A DNA stretch of 25,293 nt from a virus: the IMG/VR virus record IMGVR_UViG_3300042402_001074, positions 1 through 25,293 of that record; one strand, 5' to 3'. The position numbers and the translations under genes are program-made. The notes beneath the pieces were generated by a model that ran no database searches, was not told where the DNA came from, and saw only the letters and a list, made by a program, of their open reading frames with translations. The number at the start of each line of letters is the position of its first letter. Within the stretch, counting starts at the first letter, position 1. Positions 1,127 to 23,562 of this stretch are shown in pieces.

Positions 1127-2122
1127 ATGGCTCACCTGATCGAAACCAACCAAATCACCAACAAAGCTGAGATTGCCTACGCTGGCGATGTGCCTTGGCA
1201 CGGGCTTGGTCAATCCCTGTCTGCTAATGCTCCCATCGACGTGTGGCAGCGTGAAGCCGGTCTGGATTGGCAAGCTGTTGTGTCGCCGGTCATGTACTGG
1301 CCCGATGGCTCGGCCGCGCCCAAGACTGTCGTTGGACGCAATGTGATCTTCCGCAACGATACCCAGCAAGCCCTTGGCGTTGTGACTGACCGCTACAGGA
1401 TTCACCAGCCCAACGAAATTCTGGCGTTTTTCGACACGCTAGTGCGCTCGGCCGGGTTCAGCCTTGAAGTTGCTGGCGCAATCAGTGGCGGCAAGCGCAT
1501 CTGGGCCTTGGCCAACGTCAACCGTGAAGCTTGTGTGCTTGGCGATGACGCTGTGCGCGGCTATCTGCTGTTGTCCACAAGCTTTGACGGCTCCACTGCG
1601 ACTATCGGTCAATTCACCAGCGTCCGGGTTGTTTGCAACAACACCCTGTCGATGGCTGACCGCGAAAATGCCCCGTCCCGCGTTTCGCTCACGCATGGCG
1701 CACGGTTTGACGCTAGCCTGATGCGCGACAAGCTTGGCATCATCGTGGGCGGGTTCGACGGGATGATGGACAACTACCGCAAGCTTGCGCGTCAGGATGT
1801 CAATTCTGCGTTTGTGAAAAGCTTTCTGTCTGAGTTGTTCCCGCCCACTTTGCAGATCGCCAAAGTGCCGGGCAAGCTTGTCAAGCAAGAGGTGTACGCT
1901 GATTCCCGCGCTTACAAGAAGGTGCTGGAATTGTTCGACGGTGCAGGCATCGGCAGCGACTTGCCCGGTGTCAGCGGAACCCGCTGGGGCTTGCTCAACG
2001 CCGTGACGCAATTCATCGACCATGAACGCGGCCACAACGTCGATACCCGCATCAACAACGCGTGGTTTGGTGATGGCGCTCGTCTCAAGTCTTCCGCTGA
2101 AGACCTTCTGCTGACCGCGTAA
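1127..2122 (+). CDS. DUF932 phage/plasmid-like protein
   Basis: A 331-residue protein matching the DUF932 / TIGR03299 'phage/plasmid-like protein' family. The hallmark is AGDVPWHGLGQ near residues 19-29, followed by the conserved region around DRYRIHQPNEILAFFD and VCNNTLSMA. Family length is usually about 300-400 residues, so it looks complete. The molecular role of the family is not established; members are regularly found beside phage recombination and replication genes, as here with ERF and YqaJ proteins a few genes downstream. The start is supported by AAGGA 8 nt upstream of the ATG and by the conserved N-terminus. Confidence 0.88.
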   Translation: MAHLIETNQITNKAEIAYAGDVPWHGLGQSLSANAPIDVWQREAGLDWQAVVSPVMYWPDGSAAPKTVVGRNVIFRNDTQQALGVVTDRYRIHQPNEILAFFDTLVRSAGFSLEVAGAISGGKRIWALANVNREACVLGDDAVRGYLLLSTSFDGSTATIGQFTSVRVVCNNTLSMADRENAPSRVSLTHGARFDASLMRDKLGIIVGGFDGMMDNYRKLARQDVNSAFVKSFLSELFPPTLQIAKVPGKLVKQEVYADSRAYKKVLELFDGAGIGSDLPGVSGTRWGLLNAVTQFIDHERGHNVDTRINNAWFGDGARLKSSAEDLLLTA

Positions 2123-2124
2123 TC

Positions 2125-2250
2125 ATGTGGCCCTTCCCGCCTCCGGGCGGGCCTGTCCCTTGGACGCGCAAGCAAATTCAAGAACACGCCCGCCAGCAAC
2201 GTCAGCGCGATGAACAAGACCGCGCCAAACTTCCTCCAGCCCCGTTCTAA
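2125..2250 (+). CDS. Putative 41-aa protein
   Basis: This frame starts 2 nt after the DUF932 stop codon and reads MWPFPPPGGPVPWTRK, then a highly charged, Gln/Arg-rich helix and the end LPPAPF. The very tight spacing suggests translation coupled to the DUF932 gene, since no ribosome binding site is seen. The next gene begins 9 nt downstream with a good ribosome binding site, so the frame fills the gap neatly. I do not recognise it, and its short length keeps confidence moderate. Confidence 0.45.
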   Translation: MWPFPPPGGPVPWTRKQIQEHARQQRQRDEQDRAKLPPAPF

Positions 2251-2259
2251 GGACACGAC

Positions 2260-2373
2260 ATGAGACAACACTACAAGACAACGCCTAAAGCCTCACCGTG
2301 GCTTGATTTGGCCCTCGCCACAGTCATTGGCATTGCGATTGCCGCGCTGCTTTTTTTCTGGTGGTCAGCATGA
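2260..2373 (+). CDS. Small single-pass membrane protein, 37 aa
   Basis: A strong ribosome binding site (AAGGACACGAC) precedes the ATG. The protein has a short polar N-terminus (MRQHYKTTPKASPW) and one hydrophobic segment of about 21 residues (residues 15-36), ending in FFWWSA. It is probably an inner-membrane peptide with the N-terminus in the cytoplasm or periplasm; topology is unclear. Its stop overlaps the next start (ATGA). Small early membrane proteins in phages often act on the host, but nothing here shows a specific role. Confidence 0.6.
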   Translation: MRQHYKTTPKASPWLDLALATVIGIAIAALLFFWWSA

Positions 2374-2534
2374 AAGTCAAAATGCTGCGCCATGTGCGCG
2401 AACTGTGGAACAGCCCGCTAGTCACGCGGGAAATCAATCGCGCAAATCAGCGCAAATGGATTCGCCAAGTGCGGATATTAGGTGACAGATGGCTCTTAGC
2501 TAAACACGTTGAAAGGCACAAAAATGCAAGTTAA
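2370..2534 (+). CDS. Small basic protein, 54 aa, unknown function
   Basis: The frame begins at an ATGA overlap with the preceding membrane-protein gene and ends 11 nt inside the next one. The protein is rich in Arg and Lys (for example MLRHVRELW and NRANQRKWIRQVR) and predicted to be mostly helical, so nucleic-acid binding is possible but unproven. I do not recognise a family. The overlaps on both sides support it being a real member of the operon. Confidence 0.55.
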   Translation: MKVKMLRHVRELWNSPLVTREINRANQRKWIRQVRILGDRWLLAKHVERHKNAS

Positions 2535-2715
2535 CCCTGACGCAATCATCAACAGCATCGAGAAATCGGCTGGCATCCTGTACCGGGACAGTGAAGCCGC
2601 TGACCGGCTGGCTTGGCAGGTCGGCGCTCTGACCGCAAAGATTCGTGAGTTGTCAGCACTGCTGCAATACACGGTTGACCAGTTGAACGAACTTCAAGCA
2701 AAGGAAATGAAATGA
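2524..2715 (+). CDS. Small coiled-coil-like protein, 63 aa
   Basis: I chose the ATG at 2524 (MQVNPDAIINSIEK) because GAAAGG lies 7 nt upstream; a TTG at 2509 is also in frame but has no such support. The second half (AKIRELSALLQYTVDQLNELQAK) has heptad-like leucine spacing and is likely an amphipathic helix or short coiled coil. It sits directly before the ERF gene, sharing an ATGA overlap, so it may be a partner of the recombination proteins. Function is not known. Confidence 0.65.
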   Translation: MQVNPDAIINSIEKSAGILYRDSEAADRLAWQVGALTAKIRELSALLQYTVDQLNELQAKEMK

Positions 2716-3323
2716 TTGGTAGCAACATTGCAGCCGCGTTTGTCAAAGCTCAAAAAGAGTTTGGCCCTGCGCTTAAGTCTGCCGTTAATCCTGCGTTCCA
2801 ACGCAATGGCAAGGGCGGGCGATATGCTGACCTTGCTTCTTGTGTTGAGGCAGTCATCGACGCACTGAACAAACACGGGATTGCGCTGATGCAGCAAAAC
2901 GTCGAATGCAACGATGGCGTAATCGTGCAGACGATGTTTGTTCACGAATCGGGCGAAACCATCTATAGCGGGCAACTGCATGTCCCTGCGGCAAAACAAG
3001 ACCCTCAAGGCTATGGATCGGCGCTGACTTATGCCCGCAGGTACAGCTTGATGACTGCTTGCGGCATAGCGCCTGAAGACGATGACGGGAATGCTGCCGT
3101 AAAGCCTTCCAGCAACGTCAGCGCAGCAACGATAGCGGCTCACATTGCCGACATTCACGACAGCGCCAACAGTGATGAGATGACAGCCGCGTACAAGCTT
3201 GCGTATGAAGCTTGCCAAGGTGACCCGCACTGGATCGCCAAAGTTGTGGAAGCAAAAAAGGCAAGGCAGGCCCGCGCACAGCGCGAAAAAGAGGCGCGTG
3301 AGCAAGGGGCTGTAAATGGATGA
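2712..3323 (+). CDS. erf: ERF-family ssDNA-annealing recombinase
   Basis: A 203-residue protein of the ERF superfamily, which anneals complementary single strands during phage recombination and genome circularisation or repair. The family signature is present at residues 95-113: KQDPQGYGSALTYARRYSL. The N-terminal part (about 1-60) includes FQRNGKGGRYADL, also typical. The C-terminal third is charged and helical (KKARQARAQREKEAREQG), likely flexible. Length fits the P22 Erf group. It starts within the stop of the previous gene and overlaps the exonuclease gene by 8 nt. The ERF/YqaJ pair is the standard two-component single-strand annealing system. Confidence 0.92.
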   Translation: MIGSNIAAAFVKAQKEFGPALKSAVNPAFQRNGKGGRYADLASCVEAVIDALNKHGIALMQQNVECNDGVIVQTMFVHESGETIYSGQLHVPAAKQDPQGYGSALTYARRYSLMTACGIAPEDDDGNAAVKPSSNVSAATIAAHIADIHDSANSDEMTAAYKLAYEACQGDPHWIAKVVEAKKARQARAQREKEAREQGAVNG

Positions 3324-3930
3324 GCAGCGCACAGACGAATGGTTTGCCGCACGGCTAGGCAAGGTCACGGCCAGCCGCGTAGCAGACCTCATGGCAACCA
3401 CTAAGTCAGGCTATGCGGCCAGCCGCGACAACCTCATGGCGCAGTTGGTTGTTGAACGGCTCACCGGCCAGCAGCAAGACGGCTACACCAGTGCTTCTAT
3501 GCAGTGGGGTACAGAGCAAGAACCGTTTGCCCGTGCGGCTTATGAAATCGCAACCGGGCAGATGGTCGATGAGTGCGGGTTTGTGCCGCACCCAACGATT
3601 GCCAATGCTGGCGCATCACCTGACGGCCTTGTGGGCGCTGACGGTCTTGTAGAGATCAAGTGCCCCAACACAGCTGGGATGTTTGACGCGCTGCTGACCC
3701 AGACCGTCCCCGGCAAATACAACACCCAGATGCAAATGCAGATGGCTTGTACCGGGCGGGCTTGGTGCGACTACGCTGTGTTTGACCCGCGTATGCCTAC
3801 TAAAGCGCAACTGTTTATCAAACGTGTGCCCCGCGATCCGGTTTTCATCCAAAAGATGGAAGCTGAGATTGTCAAATTCCTTGGCGAACTTGATGCCAAG
3901 GTCAACCAACTGAAGGAACTTTTTACATGA
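3316..3930 (+). CDS. YqaJ-type (lambda Exo-like) recombination exonuclease
   Basis: A 204-residue PD-(D/E)XK nuclease of the YqaJ viral recombinase family, which resects double-stranded ends 5' to 3' to give the strands that the ERF protein anneals. The active site is visible: the GTEQEPFARAAYE helix (E67/E69), D103 in ASPDGL, and E113-x-K115 in VEIKCP. The later Y-N-T-Q-x-Q-x-Q and WCDYAVFDPRM stretches are also characteristic. The family is usually 190-320 residues, so this is a compact member. It overlaps ERF upstream and shares an ATGA with the gene downstream. Confidence 0.93.
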   Translation: MDEQRTDEWFAARLGKVTASRVADLMATTKSGYAASRDNLMAQLVVERLTGQQQDGYTSASMQWGTEQEPFARAAYEIATGQMVDECGFVPHPTIANAGASPDGLVGADGLVEIKCPNTAGMFDALLTQTVPGKYNTQMQMQMACTGRAWCDYAVFDPRMPTKAQLFIKRVPRDPVFIQKMEAEIVKFLGELDAKVNQLKELFT

Positions 3931-6596: not shown

Positions 6597-6776
6597 TTAC
6601 ACTTTAGCAAACGATGCCCAAATAACGCCAGCCATAGACACAATCAACACCGCGCCGGTTTTTATGATGATGCCTTCAAGACGTTTTAGCCTTGCGTTGA
6701 TCGTTTCATAACGAAAAGCGCACACTGCTTCGTGCGAATTTAACCGTGCTTCTGTTTCGTTGATCGTAGCCATCAT
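6597..6776 (-). CDS. Small coiled-coil/TM protein, XhlA/holin-like, 59 aa
   Basis: The protein reads MMATINETEARLNSHEAV, then CAFRYETINARLKRLEGI and a hydrophobic C-terminal segment (about residues 36-55, IIIKTGAVLIVSMAGVIWAS). A short coiled coil followed by one transmembrane helix near the C-terminus is the layout of XhlA-like holin-associated proteins. It starts by ATGA overlap with the dioxygenase gene (a second ATG follows immediately) and ends 2 nt before the 160-aa gene. It likely belongs to the lysis set as a holin partner, but this is a layout-based guess. Confidence 0.75.
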   Translation of the reverse strand: MMATINETEARLNSHEAVCAFRYETINARLKRLEGIIIKTGAVLIVSMAGVIWASFAKV

Positions 6777-7318
6777 CTAAACCTTGGGCCATGAAACCAG
6801 ATTGTTGCCGTGTATCGCACACCCGATAACACGGGCATTACGCGATGCTCCAAAATTGACGGGAATGCTATTACCGAACCTTTTTCCAATGGTGCGCTGT
6901 ATTCTTGATACAGGCGCACCTGAAACTGCCCGCCCTCAAATTCTGACGGGTCATTTAACAAACAGACCGTCGTGATCTTTCGGTCTGTTGCCTTGCCTGC
7001 CAACGGGAAAACGTCAACATGCCACCCATAATGCTGATCGGGGCCATATTGAGCAAATTGAATTGCTTCCCTGCCATCAACGTCATATTGCCAACCGCAC
7101 ACATCATTTGCTTCTGCCGCGATTTGACTCAACTGATCGCTAAACCAATATTCGAACGGGGCAAATGTAACAGTTGTGTTTCTGTGGCTGTGTTGCTTTG
7201 TCTCGCCGTCAATACCCATTGACGCATCACGCGATGGCAATGCGCTTAACTCTTTGATGACTTGATCGCAAGTATCGGAATCAACTTTTCCCAAATACCA
7301 AATTGGCAAATGACTCAT
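6773..7318 (-). CDS. 2OG-Fe(II) dioxygenase (PKHD/prolyl 4-hydroxylase type)
   Basis: A 181-residue protein of the 2-oxoglutarate/Fe(II)-dependent oxygenase superfamily. The iron ligands are H100-x-D102 in YGWHVDVFPL and H158 in SILEHRVMPV, and R168 in GVRYTATIW should bind 2-oxoglutarate. These enzymes hydroxylate protein side chains, commonly proline, or other substrates, using O2. The length is compact but complete for the double-stranded beta-helix core. The gene is coupled by ATGA overlap to the fibre-associated gene upstream and to the 59-aa gene downstream. Being two genes from a proline-rich collagen-like fibre makes that fibre a candidate substrate (inference). Confidence 0.9.
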   Translation of the reverse strand: MSHLPIWYLGKVDSDTCDQVIKELSALPSRDASMGIDGETKQHSHRNTTVTFAPFEYWFSDQLSQIAAEANDVCGWQYDVDGREAIQFAQYGPDQHYGWHVDVFPLAGKATDRKITTVCLLNDPSEFEGGQFQVRLYQEYSAPLEKGSVIAFPSILEHRVMPVLSGVRYTATIWFHGPRFR

Positions 7319-7665
7319 GGTGCGACAGGCTCCGGTGTTGGGTTCCAGGGCAACGGCTGCTCGGTCACTGGGTCGATTTTGTCTGCAATTTGTTTTGCAA
7401 TAACACCATCAACGTGTTCCGCATATGCACCTGTAACCATTGGCTCGATCCAACCCAAAACAATTTGCTCGGTCAACTGGTCAAAAGGAATAAAACCGGG
7501 CTGATTTGGGGTCGGCGCAAATGGGGTCGCTCCTGTAAACGTGCCGGTATTGCCGTTAGCATCAGTGCCGGTTTTTGTCCAATACGTTTGCACAACATAA
7601 TTGGTTTCACTGCCGACATTTGTGACTTTCATGCCGGTGACAGCCCAGGTGTAAGTGATGGTCAT
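7315..7665 (-). CDS. Tail-fibre-associated protein, DUF7936-like, 116 aa
   Basis: The protein begins [16 protein letters not shown] and continues with [20 protein letters not shown], a pattern I associate with a widespread small phage protein family (DUF7936-like) found next to tail fibres. A C-terminal part ([17 protein letters not shown], then [14 protein letters not shown]) is helical. It is short, has no signal peptide, and ends in Pro-rich [10 protein letters not shown]. It starts by ATGA overlap with the large fibre gene. A role as a fibre assembly factor or minor structural protein is likely from context but unproven. Confidence 0.75.
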
Positions 7666-10600
7666 TTCTGATCTCCAATCAGTTTGTCAAGAAGGGATTC
7701 TAGGCGAGCAATCCTTGCGTCTTGCTCCACGACTCGTTGCGCCAGTTTGACCGCCGCGACCAGTGCTGCGTTGCCATAGGCCAGCGACAAAGTCTTGTCT
7801 TCGTCCTCGGTGGCATGCACTACCTCGGGAAGCAGTTTTTGCCAATCTTGAGCAGAAGAACCAGCCTGCCGCTCGCCGCTATCAATGCGAGTGTAGGTGC
7901 CAGCCTTGACCTTTGCAACCTGCTCAACGAAATCATCAGCAAGGTCGGCCCAGTCCTTTTTTAGGCGCTCGTCGGAGTTGGCTGCGATGTTACCGGATGC
8001 CGTTAATGAACCTCCAGTGGTCAGCGTCATTATGTTTGACCCCGAGACACTGTTGTACCAGTTGAGCGTTGTGCCGCTGGTATCTACATAATTCCACCAA
8101 AGGTTTGTACCACCTTGTGCCCAATTAAACCCGACCTGACCACTACCAGAAGACGATCTGTTTGCGCGAATGTAAGCACTACCAGACGTTACTGTTAATG
8201 AATCGGCAACAACAGCATTTAGATTGCTCGTGCTGGCAGGGTCGCAATAGTAACCAGTGTTATTCTGATCGTAGTAAATTGTTGCGTACAGCGCACCGCC
8301 GCCATTTACATTTATGTCATAGACGGCTGGGTATCTCCAACTGTTAAAAGAACCTGTATCGCCGTTTCTGGTTCTAAATGCCAAGCCATAACCACCGCCG
8401 CTATAAGGCGCATTCAGCCATAGGTCATAGCTTCCATCAGTGCTAAATCTAGCTATTGGGCCTGTATATGGCGCATTAACGGAATATGTAAATCCCGTTG
8501 CGTTGGTGGCCATCGTGTTTGCATCCAAGGTAAAACCTTGGTAAAACATTGCATTTGTAGTGCTGCGTCCACCTAAAGTCAACGCATTTAAAACGCTTGT
8601 GCTGGCAGGGTCGGTGTAGTAAGCGGTGTTGTTGCTATCGTAAAAGATGGGGGTACGCATTGACCCCGAACTGATAACGATACCGCCATCGGAATCAAGA
8701 AAAATACGGGATACGCCGCCAGATGCAACATACATCCCCCAGCCACCTAAACCAAGACCGGGATTTGCTGAACCGTTTCCAACGGTATAGCCTATGCCAT
8801 ACATATTGCCAAGGTTTGTTCCCCCCGGCTGATATGAGCCACCAATGGTGTAAATGCAAGCCGAACTGTTGCTGTCCGTAGATGTTGGATAATTACCTTC
8901 AAGATACCCCGCCGCCGATGTGTTGCGGCGCAGGACTCCCTGCATGTTAATCTGGTTGAAATTTGATATGTTGGCAGGGTCTGCGTAGTACCCGGTATTG
9001 TTGGCATCGTAAAGAATGCTGGCATATGCAGCGTTTGTATTGTTGGTGCTGCTTGTTGGTGGGTAAACAGTATGCGTCGCTTGGACGCTGTTGTAAGACG
9101 AAGCGTTAAACGTAATTGCCCAGCCGTTATCCCAACGATCATATTCATAATTGGTGTAACCAACCTGAACCTCAGTGATAAACACCTGCGGATATGACCA
9201 CGACGAACCCAATTCACCAATGTATACATACATGGTGCTTCCGTCGCTGGTAAATCTTACATTTAGGGCAGACCGATTTTGCGTCCCCATGTAAGCAAAG
9301 GTGTTGTACCAATAATTGCTAGATGTATGACCGCCACAATAAATGTCGAAAGACAACCCATCGTAGGTGTACACACGGACAGTAAACCGGATCATCGGAT
9401 ATACCGACTGCGGCAGAGCAATTCTGATGGCTCCGCTTACGGTTGACGCGCTTGTTACATAAGAGCCGCCACCTGGGTTTATATTTCGTAAGCCATTGAT
9501 GTTGTTGCTGACAGCATCTGTGGTTCTCAGATTGACAATGTTGCTTGTGCTGGACGGGTCAACGTAATAACTGGTGTCGTTGGAATCGTAAAAAATTGGC
9601 GCTCGAAACGAACTGGCAACCCAGTTATTGCCCGACATATCCAATTCCCAACGATTAGCAGCAGCAGACCAGCCGCCAATCCGCATCACGTTGTCAGAAT
9701 CAAGCCCAAAATTAACAGCGTATTGTCCGGCGCGATGAAAGGCCATAATGGCCCCGCTGCCGTTGTCGGAATATGCTTGTAAAGGCGAACCAGAAGTCGG
9801 CGCTGTGTTTCCGTTGGATCGGAAATAGTTTGCCCCCGTCCATGTGTTTGTCGTGCCTAAAATGCTTGCGCCAGATGGCCCAGGCGGGCCAGCGGGGCCG
9901 GTGGGGCCGGTCGCTCCGGTTGGGCCTGTTGGGCCAGGGTTTCCCGTTGGGCCTGTTGCACCAGTTGGGCCTGCGGGGCCAGTTGGCCCAGGCGCTCCCG
10001 TTGGCCCCGTTCCACCCGTTGGGCCGGTCGGGCCGGTTGGAATAGTAAAATTAAATACCGCAGCAGATGATGTGCCGCTATTTGTTACCGATGCAGCCGA
10101 TCCTGCGGGGCCGGTTGTAGTTGGGCCAACCGCAATTGTTGCTGCGGCTCCTGCCGCCCCTGCGGGGCCAGTTGGGCCGGTTGGGCCGGTCGGGCCGGTT
10201 GTTCCAGGCGGGCCAGCAGGGCCGGTAGGGCCAGGGCCACCTGTTGGCCCCGTCGGGCCTGTGGGGCCGGTCGCCCCAGTTGGGCCAATCGGAATGCCAA
10301 AGTTAAACGTAGCTGCCGACGATGTGCCGCTGTTTGTTACCGTTGCCGCGCTTCCTGCTGCAAGGTTTGTGGTTGTACCAACCGCAATGGTTGCCGCTGC
10401 ACCTGTAGGGCCGGGACTACCTGTTGCGCCAGTTGGCCCTGTTGGCCCCGTTAAGCCAGTTGGCCCTGTTGGGCCTGCTGCACCTGTAGGGCCGTTAGGG
10501 ATGCCGAAATTAAATACCGCCGCCGATGATGTGCCGCTGTTCGTGACCGTAGCAGGACTGCCAGCCGTCAGGGTGCTAGTAGTGCCAACCGCTATGGTTG

Positions 10601-11483
10601 CGGCTGTTCCGGTTGGGCCGGGTGCGCCAGTTGGGCCGGGCGATCCTGTGGCTCCTGTTGGCCCTGTGGGGCCGGTTGGGCCAGCAGGGCCGGGTGCGCC
10701 TGTTGCTCCAACGGGGCCGGGTGCTCCTGTTGGCCCCGGCGCTCCAGTGTTTCCTGTTGGGCCTGTTGGCCCGGTCGGGCCGGGACTACCTGTAGGGCCG
10801 GGCGCGCCTGTTGGGCCAAGCTGGGTATACATCACCTGCGTTGCCGTCAGGATGACGCTCGGTGTAACCGGATAATTGCCGCTTGCCGGTATTGCTTCTA
10901 GCGAAACGCTTGTGTTATTTGTTTGCCAGAAAATTTCGATGTAATCGTTTGCGGCAACATTCAAAACATAATTGACCGTGAAAACTTCACTGCGAATGGA
11001 ACCGCTTTGTTTGTCTTGAACGTCAAAATGCGAATTGCTGTCGGCTAAATTGCTACCGTTTTTCTTCAGCCAAACTTGCGTTGACCCAACTTGATTGCTT
11101 GTATTGGTGAATTGAATCGAAAACGTGATGCTGTAAACGCCGACATATTGGAATGTCAATCGCGAACCAGAAGCAATAGAAACACCGCTGTTTGCCGCGT
11201 CAGCATTATTTAACGTGACAGCGTATGCCGTATTTGCCGCTGCTGCTGTTTGGTCTGCTGTTGACCAAAACGAACCCCAATAACCTAAAGCGCCGCCCGC
11301 CCCGGTCGGGCCTGTCGGGCCGGTAGCCCCGATTTGCACAATGCTTTGACTGCCGCCAACATCTTTTTTTATAAACAGCTTGCCGTCAGTTGTGTTAACC
11401 GCAAACTCACCTAAATCGAGATCGGATGTTGTCGGCACTTTGCCAAGAACAGATGATCGCTTAACCTGAATTTTGTTTGGCAT
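7662..11483 (-). CDS. Large collagen-like tail fibre with S74 intramolecular chaperone
   Basis: A 1273-residue fibre. Residues 1-50 ([17 protein letters not shown]...) form an N-terminal attachment domain also present in the 399-aa neighbour. Residues about 65-215 look like a C1q/TNF-type jelly roll. Residues about 219-540 are Gly-X-Y repeats (GPTG, GAPGPTG) interrupted by three similar 35-40-residue beta modules (ATIAVGTT...[14 protein letters not shown]). Four copies of a YDxNNTxYYxDP motif occur near 629, 821, 943 and 1066, marking distal beta domains. From about 1166, SDERLKKD starts a peptidase S74/endosialidase-type chaperone, whose Ser and Lys should self-cleave, ending in a coiled coil. 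It is the likely receptor-binding fibre. Confidence 0.93.
9870..10830 (-). repeat. Collagen-like GXY coding repeats
   Basis: Highly repetitive 9-nt units coding for Gly-Pro-Thr and related triplets, in four blocks (about 10825-10610, 10500-10410, 10280-10140 and 10030-9870) separated by three homologous beta-module segments. The low complexity makes length change by slippage or recombination likely. The same repeats produce a long proline/valine/glycine frame on the opposite strand that is not a gene. Confidence 0.9.
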
Positions 11484-17900: not shown

Positions 17901-18268
17901 CAGCGTTTGCCGCCCCAATAAACGTTTCCAAACGTAATCGTGTCCGGGGTCTGTCCCGGCTCTGTATTCGTGACCTCGCACAAGGTCATGACGTAATACA
18001 GCCGCTGGTTGTTGCTAGTGATGCTTAGGTCGGTGACGATGCCGCCGACATACGCCGTGCCGTACACCACCGGAACCTTGTTGCTACCAGCAGGGGCAAT
18101 TTGTGTCGGGCTTCCGGGGTTAGCCGTTGCGTCATTGGTTCCAAAGCTTTTTGGCGCAAACGCTTTCGCAATGATTGCGGAAGCAACCATATTGATTGCA
18201 AACGCTGCCGCCGTTGCAGCGTAGCCAGTCAACCCAAGAACATAACCCGCAACAATTGATCCCGGCAT
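14966..18268 (-). CDS. Tail tip / central hub protein (lambda J-like)
   Basis: A 1100-residue protein. It opens with a hydrophobic segment (about 5-36, AGYVLGLTGYAATAAAFAIN) that is normal for this class, then VPVVYGTAYVGGIVTDLSI and YYVMTLCEV, typical of J-type hubs. A Phage-tail_3-like domain lies at about 331-480 (MVSAIQITPIDLSSSYNIIE and GLQLEAGDIVTVTNANYGW). The second half carries fibronectin-like and beta modules, including FTATGGQTSFAV...LVYRNGVLL (about 803-865), found also in other phage tail fibres. It closes the distal end of the tail tube and takes part in receptor contact. It overlaps the GNAT gene by one base (TAATG). Confidence 0.9.
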   Translation of the reverse strand: MPGSIVAGYVLGLTGYAATAAAFAINMVASAIIAKAFAPKSFGTNDATANPGSPTQIAPAGSNKVPVVYGTAYVGGIVTDLSITSNNQRLYYVMTLCEVTNTEPGQTPDTITFGNVYWGGKRCIFDGTDQYKVIGLLDESTGVTDTAVAGRMNIYLFRNGSSSGVNTAQTAIQIMSNADLVYQWDASKLMSNVAFAIVEITYSQTANLTGLQATRFQVSNSRVNPGDCFADYLQSTRYGAALATSQIDYTSLTALNSYSATAVTYTTFTGGSAFQARFRFDGVLNTDAPVMDNIQAMASCADCLVRYNEITAKWGVIVQSSTYTVAMAIDDSRMVSAIQITPIDLSSSYNIIEVKFPDGTNQDSFNTALYNLAEINPSLLYANEPVNKQTVNLNLINNNVRAQLIANRLLEAAREDLQIKVNINYSGLQLEAGDIVTVTNANYGWVAKLFRIAQVVQQFSGDGQVTASLTLMEFNPAVYDDKNVTQFTPAPNTGIGSPLGFGSIPVPTITNVLPSAAIPSFGVAVTASSNGVVQYAEVYYSAFATPTDAQRIFAGTTAVNPGGNPYNPGSSMGVVTLTEIPQGDWYFFTRMVNALGSSIFSAASSVLVWRPLTFQYVNRYIAVAYADNATGTVGFSTNPRNKAYFGLYNNTTANPPVSASEYTWYQASSNFGATNYLLFSNRQNRKFSFDIGGAAQSNQTGTFVPTDTAKFDTSLWSGLPDGNNYIDLDARTGQLTRVGTTAVSSADGLLNITNNTNGSMVVSLERFLNFGSGVYSKTFNAATLTIDIYGRVVGFTQPDAFYFTENIFTATGGQTSFAVTHVVGNVLVYRNGVLLSTSEYTETTTTVVMNNACAAGETVVVLNMRAVSTDAFYEPLQTTVSSVGSSSVVYGDAPYQLIEAGNVITFANTGSPTQYTVSSVNTTTKTITFTTTLAGVTAGLQIYRYRAAGSAYRPFSRVEVDVTGVSTYTPTEISVLNGFELLFINGTSLNEIDYDLTPPALGGFPGALTGRFVIVQMAANNLGVPASNITNTVAYSTNGALSYTFPNNPLSMQLYANGALFAKGSGYDYTATTAGYNLTSAINNNFTLLNQQTFARDGAA

Positions 18269-18723
18269 TACATCACCCAGAATTCTTCAAGCTTTTGAAA
18301 ACCGAACTTTTCGTATTTTAGGTCGGGGCTGTTTACCATCTTGCTGATAAAACAATTTGCAATGCGCCCTGCTTCGCGCATTTTGATTGCCTCATCTAAA
18401 TACTCGCGCAACAAACGATAGCCTGTTGTGCCATTTCTTGCGTCCGGGTCAACCCAATAGGCAAACTCAGTCAAGATCAAATGTTTCGGTGACCAAATAC
18501 TCGGCATCACGCCAGCAATTAGGATGCCGGTAATGCGCTGCTCATGTTCGGCAACCAACACTAGACCTTGCCCTGCCATCAGGTGCGTCAGCAATTCTTT
18601 CACATGGTCAGCGTCATCAGCGTCAGCCAAAAAGCCATAAGGCATACAGCCGCGATAATCCCGCAGCCTGTCAAGAATCTGCGGGATGTCGAATGGCGAT
18701 GCTTTACGAATTTGGGGCCGCAT
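18268..18723 (-). CDS. GNAT-family N-acetyltransferase in tail module
   Basis: A 151-residue acetyltransferase of the GNAT fold, which moves an acetyl group from acetyl-CoA to an amine. I chose the ATG at 18723 (MRPQIRKASPFDIPQIL) because the family begins with this strand; an upstream ATG at 18753 would add ten residues and overlap the previous gene by 50 nt. Motif A is in YWVDPDARNGTTGYRLLREY (RNGTTG binding acetyl-CoA), and the end NSPDLKYEKFGFQKLEEFWV fits family. It sits in the place where lambda encodes gpK/gpI, so it may be a virion- or assembly-linked enzyme. The substrate is unknown. Confidence 0.87.
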   Translation of the reverse strand: MRPQIRKASPFDIPQILDRLRDYRGCMPYGFLADADDADHVKELLTHLMAGQGLVLVAEHEQRITGILIAGVMPSIWSPKHLILTEFAYWVDPDARNGTTGYRLLREYLDEAIKMREAGRIANCFISKMVNSPDLKYEKFGFQKLEEFWVM

Positions 18724-19309
18724 CTTTGCCAAACTGATAGTTGATCGTCTCAATGAAAGGAACCCGATTCATCGACGTATCGTTGCTGTTGTAGAACTGC
18801 CATGAACTGTTGTTCGTGTAGCGGCCTGCAATCCGGTTTTGCAAAATCAACTGAATTGACGATGCCGACACGCTGATTGTTCCAAGGTACATCCGGGCTT
18901 CGTCCATCCACTGCTCACTAATTGCAAACGATGTGATGATGCCGTTGAAATACTGGTACAAGCCGCCTGTGCCGCCTGTTGTGATTAGCGCCCCGTTCGT
19001 ATCAAAAAACCCGTGCCAAAGCTGGATCGGTGAGCCTTTGACGTTTTGCCCTAGAACAAACCCAAGCATAGATGTGTCTATGCCTGACAGCGTGATCGTC
19101 GTGTCGTTTGCCGTTGATTTAATGTCGCGCTGAATGTCTCCGATTGACAGCAAGGTTCCAACCGACTGAAACGGGTTTGCGTCTACCGCCGACACAGTTA
19201 AATTAGCGGGGGCAGTGGTCATCAGGTAAGTGCCACCGACTGTCGTGATCCGCAGGAAATCCGCAATGCGGATATTGCTTGTGCCTTCAACCGGGGTAAT
19301 GACGTTCAC
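18704..19309 (-). CDS. Minor tail protein (between tape measure and tail tip)
   Basis: I start this gene at a GTG (19309) whose last bases overlap the stop of the preceding gene (GTGA), giving 201 residues beginning VNVITPVEGTSNIRI. The frame is open upstream to 19477, but that part lies inside the previous gene and reads like a shadow. The protein is beta-rich: TTITLSGIDTSMLGFVLGQN, GSPIQLWHGFFD and SIQLILQNRIAGRYTNNSSW. Its position matches lambda gpL or siphophage distal-tail proteins. I cannot name the family with certainty. It overlaps the GNAT gene start by 20 nt. Confidence 0.8.
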   Translation of the reverse strand: MNVITPVEGTSNIRIADFLRITTVGGTYLMTTAPANLTVSAVDANPFQSVGTLLSIGDIQRDIKSTANDTTITLSGIDTSMLGFVLGQNVKGSPIQLWHGFFDTNGALITTGGTGGLYQYFNGIITSFAISEQWMDEARMYLGTISVSASSIQLILQNRIAGRYTNNSSWQFYNSNDTSMNRVPFIETINYQFGKDAAPNS

Positions 19310-19987: not shown

Positions 19988-22177
19988 TCAGCGGCTCATC
20001 GGCAGTGATCGCTGTGCGCTTTGGTTTGCCGCCCAGACTGCTTGTTTATTTTGCGCCAAAAACTGAACACCCGATTGTGTGTCGATGGCGCTCATCTGCT
20101 GAATGAATGGCCCGTTGTAATTGATTGTTTGACCGCCGCCCATCATTCCTGCCAATTGATGCGTTGGAACAATTGCCCCGCTACGTTGCGGCACAAACAG
20201 CTCTGGCCCACGTTCGCCAACCATATATGGCAAACCTCCAGACACCGGCCCGCCTTCTGCTTGTGGCAAGGCTCCCGATAAATACCGATTGAATGACGGG
20301 CCCAATTCCTGTTGAACAAGATTCGGCCCAGTGGTTAGCGGAACACCAGTCGAACCAAATACAGAAAACAGACGCGAAATTTGCGCCCGCATTTGAATCG
20401 CAATAATGTCGGAAATGATGCTGCGAGCCAAATCTTTGAACGACAATTTGCCTGTTCGTACAAATTGCGTTATCGCGTTTTCCATGCTGCTCATCAGCAC
20501 GTTAAACGTCTGCTGTCCCGCCTTAAATGCGCTCATAGCATTGTCAACCGATTGGTACATAGCTTCCTCAAAACCGCCAAGGAATGACCCAGTGCGCGTC
20601 CGGTTCATTAACTCAAAACGCTGTTGCGCCAAATCCATTTCTTGCTGAGATAAATGCAATTGTTCGTTCAATGCTTTTTTTCTTGCCGCCGCCCCAAGAT
20701 TCTCGTTCTCGTTTATTTTTTTAATCGCATCAGCATGTCTGAATCTAATTCCTAAAACTTCTTGTGCAAGCTGCACTTCTTGCGCTCTCATGAACCGCGC
20801 TTTTTCGCTTAGCTCCAACATTAGGCGTTCGCGCCTCAACCTTTCATTTGCTGCACTTTGCTCATTTTCTACTGCAACTTCTTGCTTTTTCTGGGCGCTA
20901 AGATATTCAATAAACTCCTGACGCTCTTTTTGCTGGCGTTCAATATCTATTGTTCGGCGCTCAGCCACGACAGCTTTTTGTCTTTCCAATTCATCTCGAT
21001 ATTGCTTTTGATAGTCCAGCAATTCTTGCAATTCTCTGATTTGACGCTCTCGATCCCTTTCCCTCAGCGCCATATCTCGCGCTGCTTGCTCCGACAGACG
21101 CTGCTGTTCACGCTCTTGATCTTCAGCGTATTTTTTTTGATATTCCCTTAATTCCTCAAATTCTCTGATCTGCCGTTCTTTGTCCTGTTCCCTCAGCGCC
21201 ATAACCCTGCGCCGGGTTTCCATTTCTTTTTTTGCGGCTTCTTCTGCTGGCTTATTCACGCCGGCAGTTACGGTACGCACAGGCGTTCTTGCGCCACCGA
21301 CACCGGGCCTATTCGCAAGTGCGGCATCTTGAGCAGCAAGCTGCTCTTGATTCAACCCTTGACCGCTTTCTGCTCCCGGCTGTCCGGCCAAGAACAGCCT
21401 GAAACCCGGCATGATGGCAAAAAGCTTTTCGTATTTTTTTGCCATTTGCAGGAATTCATCGCCTGCCTTTTTTATCGCATCGGTCAGCTTGTCAAATTGC
21501 TCGATAGCAGCTTTGATTCCCGGCCCAATGGTTGCCGCAAATCCTTCCATCGCTTTGCGGCTGCGCTCAGCAAGCATGTCGTATGCGTCTGCCGCCGCCT
21601 TTAGCCCTTCTTCGTGCCTTTTCAAATCGGCCGTAGTGACCTTGTTCACTTGTTCGCTAAAATCTTTTACGTCTACGCCTTTCATGGCGCGGCCAAAGAC
21701 TTCAACGCTTTTTGCGTTTCGGGTCAGGGTGTCATCCATTTGCGAAAGCCCTGAAGCGGCCTTCTTGAACAACTCATCTATGCTTAGCGTTTTTAGGTCT
21801 TGCAGCGAAACGCCTAAGCCTTGCAGCGTTTTCTGTGCTTCAAAGGAACCGTCAGCGGCTTTGTCAATGTACTGCGTAAAGCTCGATAGCAGCTTAGATG
21901 CGTTTGATGCTTCCCCGCCAGTACTGGCTAGGGCATTGCGTAGCTGGACGATTGAACTGACCGCTACATCGTTAGCCTTTGCAACATCGACAACTTCGTC
22001 GGCATAGCGCAGTGCGGCCCCGGCTGCGGCAGAAAAACCGGCAGCAGCAATCGCCCCGTATTGTTTTACAAAGCCCCCCAAGGCTTGCAATGACCCCTTG
22101 GCGCTTTCAATCCCGCGTGTGAACTCCGCGCTGTTCAGACCTAGCGTAACCCCAAGTCGACCGACAAAATTAGTCAT
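19988..22177 (-). CDS. Tail length tape-measure protein
   Basis: A 729-residue protein that spans the tail lumen and sets tail length. N-terminal VGRLGVTLGLNSAEFTRGIE is typical of lambda-like tape measures; a hydrophobic stretch follows (about 40-57). Residues about 310-500 form a long charged coiled coil containing a 43-residue tandem repeat (MALREQDKERQIRE at 326, MALRERDRERQIRE at 369, and a weaker third copy around 412). The C-terminal part has GGLPYMVGERGPELFVPQRS, a strongly conserved tape-measure motif. By the usual 0.15 nm per residue, the tail would be about 110 nm. It overlaps the G-T frame by 8 nt. Confidence 0.93.
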   Translation of the reverse strand: MTNFVGRLGVTLGLNSAEFTRGIESAKGSLQALGGFVKQYGAIAAAGFSAAAGAALRYADEVVDVAKANDVAVSSIVQLRNALASTGGEASNASKLLSSFTQYIDKAADGSFEAQKTLQGLGVSLQDLKTLSIDELFKKAASGLSQMDDTLTRNAKSVEVFGRAMKGVDVKDFSEQVNKVTTADLKRHEEGLKAAADAYDMLAERSRKAMEGFAATIGPGIKAAIEQFDKLTDAIKKAGDEFLQMAKKYEKLFAIMPGFRLFLAGQPGAESGQGLNQEQLAAQDAALANRPGVGGARTPVRTVTAGVNKPAEEAAKKEMETRRRVMALREQDKERQIREFEELREYQKKYAEDQEREQQRLSEQAARDMALRERDRERQIRELQELLDYQKQYRDELERQKAVVAERRTIDIERQQKERQEFIEYLSAQKKQEVAVENEQSAANERLRRERLMLELSEKARFMRAQEVQLAQEVLGIRFRHADAIKKINENENLGAAARKKALNEQLHLSQQEMDLAQQRFELMNRTRTGSFLGGFEEAMYQSVDNAMSAFKAGQQTFNVLMSSMENAITQFVRTGKLSFKDLARSIISDIIAIQMRAQISRLFSVFGSTGVPLTTGPNLVQQELGPSFNRYLSGALPQAEGGPVSGGLPYMVGERGPELFVPQRSGAIVPTHQLAGMMGGGQTINYNGPFIQQMSAIDTQSGVQFLAQNKQAVWAANQSAQRSLPMSR
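20945..21202 (-). repeat. Tandem 129-nt duplication inside the tape-measure gene
   Basis: Two adjacent in-frame copies of about 129 nt (21202-21074 and 21073-20945) encode the 43-residue coiled-coil repeats. A degenerate third copy follows. The copies are still similar at DNA level (for example CTCAGCGCCAT occurs in both). Confidence 0.75.
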
Positions 22178-22532
22178 GCTTCTTGAACCTGTTCGGGTTG
22201 AACCCCGGTGCTGCGCTCATCCACGTTTTCAGCGCGTTTTGGGTGGCATCCTGCTGCTGCTCTTTGCTCAGCGGGGGCACAATGTAATCATACGCAAGAC
22301 CCAAAATCTTGGCTAGCTTGTAATCGGGAGCATTCGCCGGGCGCATGTAATTAAATACACCAGCCGTTAACTGCCCCAAGACGGTCAAAATTCCTTGGTT
22401 GCCAATGATGCCGTCAGCGTACATAACCTGTATGCGGGCCATCGTCATTTCGTCTAGTTGCGCGATAGATTCTTTCGTGTGCCCATTGAAGATCATCGCG
22501 CTCTCAACTTGCGACTTCAATGAGCCTATCAG
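22170..22532 (-). CDS. Tail assembly chaperone T frame (expressed as G-T fusion)
   Basis: This frame lies -1 relative to the 160-aa chaperone and is entered from its last codon. Reading continues LIGSLKSQVESAMIF and ends APGFNPNRFKKHD, adding 120 residues. There is no convincing own start: only a TTG at 22520 and no ribosome binding site. This arrangement equals the lambda G/GT pair, where the fusion binds the tape measure during tail assembly. The predicted fusion covers 22170-23011 and is 280 residues long. The T part is Gln- and helix-rich, with no known enzymatic motif. Confidence 0.85.
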   Translation of the reverse strand: MIGSLKSQVESAMIFNGHTKESIAQLDEMTMARIQVMYADGIIGNQGILTVLGQLTAGVFNYMRPANAPDYKLAKILGLAYDYIVPPLSKEQQQDATQNALKTWMSAAPGFNPNRFKKHD

Positions 22533-22538
22533 TTTCCC
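22503..22538 (-). promoter_or_regulatory. -1 programmed frameshift signal
   Basis: On the leftward strand, the heptamer GGGAAAC (22538-22532) lies in the frame G GGA AAC and is followed at once by the stop TGA. A stem (CTCA-TTG-loop-CAA-GT-TGAG, 22524-22503) begins 7 nt after the heptamer. Both elements fit classic -1 slippage, and the -1 frame opens directly into the T reading frame. Confidence 0.88.
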
Positions 22539-23011
22539 CGCGTTTCCTTGTAGGTCGGGCTGATTGCTTCGGTGATTTTTTCAATCAGCGCAATCTGTAC
22601 CGTCCACGGGAATTCCGACTCAATCTCAGCATAGGTCAAATCGTCCAGCGTCATTTCCGGGTTTTCCGGCACTAGCAATTTGATGAATTCTGTCACCCTG
22701 ATTTCGGTGATTGCTTTGTTTTTCGCGGCCTCACGCATCGACCGCCCGTTCACAATCACATCGTTTTCGGTGAACTCAACGCCTTCGCTGGCTTGCTCTT
22801 TGAACTTCAACAGCGGCTCAGCCAGCAGTTGATAAATGTTTTCAACCTGCTCCGGGTCTGGGTTGTTGATCTTTTCGTAGATGGCATCTGTTTCTGCCAC
22901 ATACGGAATCCTGACCTTGAACGTGTGCCCGCCCAATTCAAACGTGCGGGTGAAGATGTTAAGTTTTTTGGCTTGATATTTTTCGCCAAGGGCTGATGCA
23001 AGTTTTGTCAT
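22529..23011 (-). CDS. Tail assembly chaperone G
   Basis: A 160-residue protein placed directly before the tape-measure gene, as lambda gpG is. It reads MTKLASALGEKYQAKKLNIF, has FELGGHTFKVRIPYVAETD typical of such chaperones, and a helical C-terminus. The last three codons contain the slippery site G GGA AAC, so part of the ribosomes should shift to make the G-T fusion. It starts by ATGA overlap with the HK97 gp10-like gene. The protein is not expected in the mature virion. Confidence 0.88.
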   Translation of the reverse strand: MTKLASALGEKYQAKKLNIFTRTFELGGHTFKVRIPYVAETDAIYEKINNPDPEQVENIYQLLAEPLLKFKEQASEGVEFTENDVIVNGRSMREAAKNKAITEIRVTEFIKLLVPENPEMTLDDLTYAEIESEFPWTVQIALIEKITEAISPTYKETRGN

Positions 23012-23562
23012 GTCGTGTTCTTTGCTCTGTATTCGTTGATTCGTCTTTTGAGAACTTCGGCCAACTTGTTCACGGTAGCTTGAGCATTGTTTTCTAATGC
23101 GGGCCTCATGAACGGTTGTGCCGGTTGCGATGCCGTGCCGAACTCCTGCGCGATTGCTCTAGCATCGTAAGGAAAATTTATCGACTTGGCGAATTCCTTG
23201 AATTTTTTCTTGCGTTGCTCCTTGCTCAAATTTTTGTTGGCCTCATAAAACTGCTTTTTCAGTTTTTTCGGGAATGCTTTCGTTGTGATTGCGCCGATGA
23301 CCGTGTCAGTCTGCAAAATGTATTTGCTGCGTATATCGCGCCTCGTTGGCCTTCTGGCTTCGATTTGCAACGATGCGGCCAGTTGCCCTGTGTCTCGCGG
23401 GGCACTAGCTTTCGCCGCGTTCAACACCGGGCGCATCGCTTCCCGCACCGCTGGCACTAGAACTCGCTTTGCGCTTTCCTTGTGCCCAAAATCATCCTCC
23501 AGTTGCCGCAACATCTTATCCACCTCACCGATGCCCTCTAGCTTGATGGAAACGCCAGCCAT
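23008..23562 (-). CDS. HK97 gp10-like tail completion protein
   Basis: A 184-residue protein of the HK97 gp10-like family. The opening VSIKLEGIGEVDKMLRQLED, then AMRPVLNAAKASAPRDTGQL and RAIAQEFGTASQPAQPFMRP match its signature. The insert rich in Lys (NLSKEQRKKKFKEFA) is common in this family. Such proteins act at the head-tail interface or tail end during tail completion. It is unusual that it lies after the tail tube gene rather than before the tail terminator. It overlaps the chaperone start by ATGA. Confidence 0.9.
   Translation of the reverse strand: MAGVSIKLEGIGEVDKMLRQLEDDFGHKESAKRVLVPAVREAMRPVLNAAKASAPRDTGQLAASLQIEARRPTRRDIRSKYILQTDTVIGAITTKAFPKKLKKQFYEANKNLSKEQRKKKFKEFAKSINFPYDARAIAQEFGTASQPAQPFMRPALENNAQATVNKLAEVLKRRINEYRAKNTT

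What the first reader, a model, noticed from the sequence alone, without database searches (positions are those of the whole stretch)
22503..23011. Complete -1 frameshift cassette for tail chaperones G/G-T
The chaperone frame ends in G GGA AAC TGA, a canonical X_XXY_YYZ heptamer in the correct frame right before the stop. A stem-loop starts 7 nt downstream, and the -1 frame opens into the 120-residue T part that has no start of its own. Use of GGGAAAC (lambda uses GGGAAAG) directly abutting the stop is a clean example. The predicted G-T product is 280 aa.
Basis: partly seen in the sequence, partly recalled or inferred. Interest (0 to 1): 0.6.

Follow-up and report, generated by a model that had tools for sequence, protein, structure and literature searches.

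The report
Phage tail-chaperone minus-one frameshift site
A freshwater-type tailed phage most likely makes a second, longer tail-building helper protein by letting some ribosomes slip back one base at GGGAAAC; relatives keep the slip site and a hairpin just after it, so the site looks real, but the trick itself is well known.

Summary
On the minus strand, the 160-codon gene 23011-22529 ends CGG GGA AAC TGA. GGGAAAC (22538-22532) sits in the X_XXY_YYZ frame against the stop, and the -1 frame (22532-22170) adds 120 residues, giving a 280-aa fusion. All 100 distinct relative junctions examined keep the -1 relation. The heptamer is GGGAAAC in 87. Elsewhere it changes only to other shift-prone strings: AAAAAAC in apparently three lineages, GGAAAAG, GTCAAAG and GGGAAAG.

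A 12-bp hairpin (11 bp in this window), first paired base 7 nt downstream, is conserved. Its variable pairs change together at synonymous third positions on both arms. Three of its pairs are the top three of 36,856 third-position pairs in the two genes. An AAGGAA/AGGGAA motif 5 nt upstream is also kept by codon choice. The T frame does contain a TTG and a conserved ATG, but neither behaves like a start. G has no Pfam or PHROG match, yet its predicted structure best matches the HK97 tail assembly chaperone (2OB9), and the next gene is the tape measure.

This is a well-documented new member of the lambda G/GT class. GGGAAAC was already proposed in haloarchaeal tailed viruses and IS elements. Frameshifting itself was not measured.

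The parts
22529..23011 (-). G part: tail assembly chaperone ORF, 160 aa, zero frame, stop TGA at 22531-22529
   Evidence: dN/dS about 0.17 across relatives; best PDB fold match HK97 tail assembly chaperone 2OB9
22532..22538 (-). Slippery heptamer G_GGA_AAC in the X_XXY_YYZ frame, directly before the zero-frame stop
   Evidence: kept or replaced by other slippery strings in 100/100 distinct junctions; GGA and AAC codons show no synonymous variation where the residue is kept
22544..22549 (-). AAGGAA Shine-Dalgarno-like motif, 5 nt upstream of the heptamer (possible stimulator)
   Evidence: AAG in 49 of 54 lysine codons (27% elsewhere in the two genes), AGG in 35 of 37 arginine codons (12% elsewhere)
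22514..22525 (-). 5' arm of the conserved 12-bp hairpin, first paired base 7 nt downstream of the heptamer (11 pairs form in the window: 22525-22515)
22481..22492 (-). 3' arm of the conserved hairpin (22491-22481 paired in the window)
22170..22532 (-). T part in the -1 frame: 120 residues LIGSLKSQVESAM...RFKKHD, stop TAA 22172-22170
   Evidence: dN/dS about 0.17
19988..22177 (-). Tape measure protein (729 aa); its ATG overlaps the T stop
   Evidence: Pfam Tape_meas_lam_C 8e-16; PHROG tape measure families
23008..23562 (-). HK97 gp10-like tail completion / Neck1 protein upstream of G
   Evidence: Pfam HK97-gp10_like 3.4e-06, phrog_5 3.6e-19

Best explanation
This is a programmed -1 ribosomal frameshift cassette of the lambda G/GT kind. 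Most ribosomes stop at TGA 22531-22529 and release the 160-aa chaperone G. A minority, paused with GGA in the P site and AAC in the A site by the hairpin at 22525-22481 (perhaps helped by the AAGGAA motif behind them), slip to GGG and AAA and go on in the -1 frame through CTG ATA GGC..., making the 280-aa G-T fusion. By analogy with lambda, G coats the tape measure protein (the next gene) and the T part of the few G-T molecules recruits the tail tube protein; both then leave the tail. Shown here: anatomy, conservation, covariation, chaperone-like fold, gene order. Inferred: that slippage happens, its efficiency (a few percent expected), the role of the upstream motif, and the assembly function.
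For: Frame and anatomy. -1 relation kept in 100/100 distinct junctions; heptamers GGGAAAC 87, AAAAAAC 5, GGAAAAG 5, GTCAAAG 1, and GGGAAAG in the two where the zero-frame stop lies 12 sense codons further on. AAAAAAC appears in three sequence contexts (AGA AAA AAC, CGA AAA AAC, CAA AAA AAC; L060 group, L156, L153): glycine becomes lysine while all three X bases change together. Synonymous constraint peaks over the last 10 G codons and first 10 T codons, excess 0.56 and 0.47 against a mean of 0.23. Hairpin: 98.4% of cells paired, 44 cells changed on both sides against 16.5 in shuffles, slid controls 29-59% paired. The stem pairs T6-T14, T4-T16 and T5-T15 rank 1, 2, 3 among 36,856 third-position pairs; on the tree T4-T16 changes about 10 times and T5-T15 about 13 times, nearly always on both sides. 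Median energy of the 51 nt after the heptamer -19.2 kcal/mol against -8.0 for other stretches of G and T. T residues before Met13 are conserved with synonymous changes only: Ser4 and Leu5 91/91, Gln8 91/91 as CAA or CAG. Chaperone identity: HK97 TAC 2OB9 is the top fold match (Foldseek probability 0.82; Z 6.1 over 102 residues); tape measure directly downstream.
Against: No protein-level evidence. A_AAC heptamers are weak in E. coli (PMC4066793), so efficiency may be low unless stimulated or unless the host differs. Met13 of T (ATG 22496) is present in 88/91 relatives and was used as the T start in the P19250A record. The fold match to 2OB9 is moderate (Foldseek E 0.37). G and T match no Pfam or PHROG chaperone model.
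Confidence: 0.95

Rival explanations
1. T is a separate gene started at ATG 22496 (T codon 13) or TTG 22520 (T codon 5) by coupled re-initiation after the G stop; the heptamer is incidental.
For: ATG13 is present in 88/91 relatives; the P19250A record annotates T from that ATG; TTG5 is present in 69/91.
Against: ATG13 has no Shine-Dalgarno pairing (median +0.3 kcal/mol against -6.1 for the tape-measure start) and is CTT in three relatives. TTG5 is TTA in 22/91 and lies in the hairpin; the purine run upstream of it is too far away for initiation. T residues before Met13 are conserved with synonymous changes (Ser4, Leu5, Gln8), so that stretch is translated from upstream. The rival does not explain heptamer conservation or the coordinated GGG to AAA switch.
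Confidence: 0.04
2. The fusion arises by transcriptional slippage on the homopolymer runs rather than by ribosome slippage.
For: Some relatives carry AAAAAAC.
Against: Most members have only GGGG and AAA runs, short for polymerase slippage (about nine A or T in the cases described in PMC5009743). A covarying hairpin 7 nt downstream fits ribosomal frameshifting (usual spacing 5-8 nt, PMC4066793).
Confidence: 0.01

Closest known systems
Phage lambda G/GT tail assembly chaperones and their -1 frameshift (Xu, Hendrix and Duda, as reviewed in PMC5009743)
   Same: Short ORF, -1 frame extension, order tail completion gene - G - GT - tape measure, GGGAAA-type heptamer near the end of G
   Different: GGGAAAC instead of GGGAAAG, heptamer directly abutting the stop, a covarying hairpin and a conserved upstream purine motif; no detectable sequence similarity in Pfam or PHROGs
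HK97 tail assembly chaperone (2OB9)
   Same: Best solved-structure match of the predicted G fold
   Different: Longer (160 against about 107 residues), about 15% identity, moderate scores
Haloarchaeal tailed viruses HCTV-1 (G_GGA_AAC), HCTV-2 (A_AAA_AAC), HCTV-5 (G_GGA_AAG)
   Same: The same three heptamers are proposed for their g-t genes (PMC5009743)
   Different: Archaeal hosts; those heptamers are spread over three viruses, while here they alternate within one gene family
Methylophilaceae phage P19250A genes P19250A_0013/0014
   Same: Homologues of G and T (50% and 48% identity), -1 relation, same hairpin
   Different: GTCAAAG shift site; annotated as two separate hypothetical proteins
Bacterial IS-element and dnaX -1 cassettes
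   Same: Heptamer plus downstream hairpin, and an upstream SD-like motif in dnaX and IS911
   Different: Different genes; usually A_AAG or A_AAA heptamers. The 5-nt gap between motif and heptamer here looks shorter than in dnaX (about 10 nt, from memory)

Membership tests
Phage tail assembly chaperone G/GT frameshift pair | Two overlapping ORFs in -1 relation between tail completion/tube genes and the tape measure gene | tested here: met
   -1 relation in 100/100 distinct junctions
Phage tail assembly chaperone G/GT frameshift pair | Slippery heptamer in the X_XXY_YYZ frame near the end of G, conserved in relatives | tested here: met
   strict X_XXY_YYZ in 94 of 100 (87 GGGAAAC, 5 AAAAAAC, 2 GGGAAAG), relaxed in 6 (GGAAAAG, GTCAAAG)
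Phage tail assembly chaperone G/GT frameshift pair | Downstream frame has no conserved independent translation start | tested here: met
   caveat: ATG at T codon 13 is present in 88/91, without a Shine-Dalgarno match
Phage tail assembly chaperone G/GT frameshift pair | G has the tail assembly chaperone fold | tested here: met
   Top PDB match 2OB9 by both aligners, but moderate: Foldseek E 0.37, probability 0.82; Z 6.1, 3.7 A over 102 residues. Not recognised by sequence profiles
Phage tail assembly chaperone G/GT frameshift pair | G and G-T both made, at a low G-T fraction, and both needed for tails | not testable with these tools
   needs protein and genetic data
-1 programmed frameshift with RNA stimulator | Stable RNA structure starting about 5-8 nt after the heptamer, maintained by selection | tested here: met
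-1 programmed frameshift with upstream Shine-Dalgarno stimulator | SD-like motif at a stimulatory distance upstream of the heptamer | tested here: inconclusive
   Motif conserved by codon choice, but its 5-nt spacing looks short compared with dnaX; effect unknown

The most novel reading that the evidence does not exclude
In this phage lineage the weak bacterial A_AAC heptamers (GGGAAAC, AAAAAAC) are the normal choice for tail-chaperone frameshifting. They may be made workable by a dedicated covarying hairpin plus an SD-like motif, while relatives that switched to A_AAG have let the XXX part, and in most cases the upstream motif, decay. That would be a natural experiment on how heptamer and stimulators trade off.
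Probability: 0.3. Interest if true: 0.45.

Novelty: new member of a known kind. Interest (0 to 1): 0.3.

Why it matters
It gives a functional assignment, including a joined 280-aa product, to two uncharacterised protein families in a freshwater-type phage group whose isolated member (P19250A) is annotated as two unrelated hypothetical proteins. The lineage is also a clean comparative data set: one frameshift cassette with a strongly covarying hairpin and several natural heptamer variants, usable for testing how weak A_AAC sites are stimulated in bacteria.

Tried and rejected
Heptamer abundance as evidence: GGGAAAC is not enriched in the window. Folding 99 nt from the heptamer: not unusual (z -0.8); the signal appears only for the local hairpin. 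Rfam: no match in the window. Pfam and PHROG profiles for G and T: nothing above noise. PDB sequence search with the G profile: nothing credible. T fold: low confidence (pTM 0.39) and matches only unnamed phage proteins. Separate T start at TTG 22520 or ATG 22496: rejected on conservation and lack of SD pairing. An automatic call of the last seven G bases in L012/L013 as the shift site was wrong: the homologous site is GGGAAAG, 12 sense codons earlier. Inner part of the hairpin loop: weakly supported, not claimed. Literature searches found no report of this cassette in the papers held, but subscription papers, including Xu et al. 2004, could not be read.

Full report
What is there. On the minus strand, ORF 23011-22529 (160 aa) ends ...TAC AAG GAA ACG CGG GGA AAC TGA, and the -1 frame continues from the C of the heptamer as CTG ATA GGC TCA TTG AAG... 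to TAA at 22172-22170. GGGAAAC as a string is not rare in the window, 5 copies against 3.8 expected, so the case rests on frame, position and conservation. Upstream lies an HK97 gp10-like tail completion gene and downstream, overlapping the T stop, a 729-aa tape measure gene, which is the standard place for G/GT.

Conservation. Scans of IMG/VR with G and T gave relatives down to about 41-50% identity, plus one isolated phage, Methylophilaceae phage P19250A. One scan of bacterial and archaeal genomes gave only two hits, on short MAG contigs. In 100 distinct junctions the T frame is always -1 to G. The heptamer is GGGAAAC in 87, AAAAAAC in 5, GGAAAAG in 5 and GTCAAAG in P19250A. In two distant loci (L012, L013) GGGAAAG is at the homologous place and the zero-frame stop lies 12 sense codons later. 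AAAAAAC occurs in three codon contexts (AGA AAA AAC, CGA AAA AAC, CAA AAA AAC), so the glycine codon becomes lysine while the three X bases change together. Selection is on slipperiness, not on the amino acids. Synonymous constraint peaks at the junction, and both halves evolve under purifying selection, dN/dS about 0.17.

The hairpin. Twelve base pairs (22525-22514 with 22492-22481; the innermost pair does not form in the window itself) are kept in 98.4% of cells over 36 sequences, and four pairs show compensatory changes. These are third codon positions on both arms (T codons 3, 4, 5, 6 with 17, 16, 15, 14), where the protein does not demand them. Among all 36,856 pairs of third-position columns in G and T, the pairs T6-T14, T4-T16 and T5-T15 are ranks 1, 2 and 3; on the tree T4-T16 and T5-T15 change about 10 and 13 times, almost always together. 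The median energy of the 51 nt after the heptamer is -19.2 kcal/mol against -8.0 elsewhere in the genes. The first paired base is the 7th nucleotide after the heptamer, within the usual 5-8 nt (PMC4066793). Rfam has no such family.

Upstream motif. Five nucleotides before the heptamer stands AAGGAA or AGGGAA. At this codon lysine is AAG in 49 of 54 (27% elsewhere) and arginine AGG in 35 of 37 (12% elsewhere). It looks selected and resembles a Shine-Dalgarno stimulator, but the spacing looks shorter than in dnaX (my recollection, about 10 nt), so its role is left open. It is lost in 5 of the 6 A_AAG-type relatives in the 91-sequence set and kept in all 85 A_AAC ones, allowing CGGGAA in two. This may be one or two evolutionary events only.

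Starts for T. The T frame contains TTG 22520 (codon 5) and ATG 22496 (codon 13). TTG is TTA in 22/91. ATG is present in 88/91, but its upstream region has no anti-SD pairing (median +0.3 kcal/mol against -6.1 at the tape measure start). Residues before it (Ser4, Leu5, Gln8) are conserved through synonymous changes, so they are translated from upstream. The P19250A record starts its T gene at the equivalent ATG, which is probably an annotation convenience.

Identity. G and T match no Pfam or PHROG family. An AlphaFold model of G (pLDDT 85.7) has the HK97 tail assembly chaperone 2OB9 as its top solved-structure match by both aligners, and several named phage tail assembly chaperones appear among weaker viral matches. 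With the gene order and the frameshift, the chaperone assignment is about 0.9 likely. The T model is poor.

Compared with what is known. The lambda-type G/GT frameshift is textbook, and proposals for GGGAAAC, AAAAAAC and GGGAAAG at g-t sites exist in haloarchaeal viruses (PMC5009743). GGGAAAC and AAAAAAC are weak in E. coli yet very likely used by IS elements (PMC4066793). Frameshifting in an HK97-like TAC cluster was measured at 6-7% (PMC3711429). So this is a new, unusually well supported member of a known kind. Efficiency and the fusion product itself remain unmeasured.

Noticed in passing
7662-11483 (-) and 6773-7318 (-): A 1273-aa tail-fibre-like protein with collagen repeats (Pfam Collagen 1.8e-26) and a C-terminal Peptidase_S74 chaperone domain lies close to a 2OG-Fe(II) oxygenase (PF13640, 2.4e-18). 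This suggests, without test, a phage collagen-like fibre with its own proline or lysine hydroxylase.
   Followed up: partly
18268-18753 (-): A GNAT-like acetyltransferase ORF sits inside the tail gene cluster (Pfam Acetyltransf_1 3e-4, just over its cut-off).
   Followed up: partly
L095 4004-4312 (KX815270.1 10407-10715): Methylophilaceae phage P19250A gene P19250A_0014 is probably the C-terminal part of a frameshift fusion with P19250A_0013, and its true T part starts 12 codons earlier. Its shift site reads GTCAAAG, which fits only the A_AAG tetramer.
   Followed up: partly
L012 3457-3560: In the distant relatives L012/L013 the shift site is GGGAAAG with the zero-frame stop 12 sense codons downstream; a different hairpin (GGTCAG...CTGACC) stands at a similar distance, z -2.9.
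   Followed up: partly
1127-3930 (+): Opposite-strand block with DUF932, ERF recombinase and YqaJ exonuclease genes: a phage recombination module.
   Followed up: no
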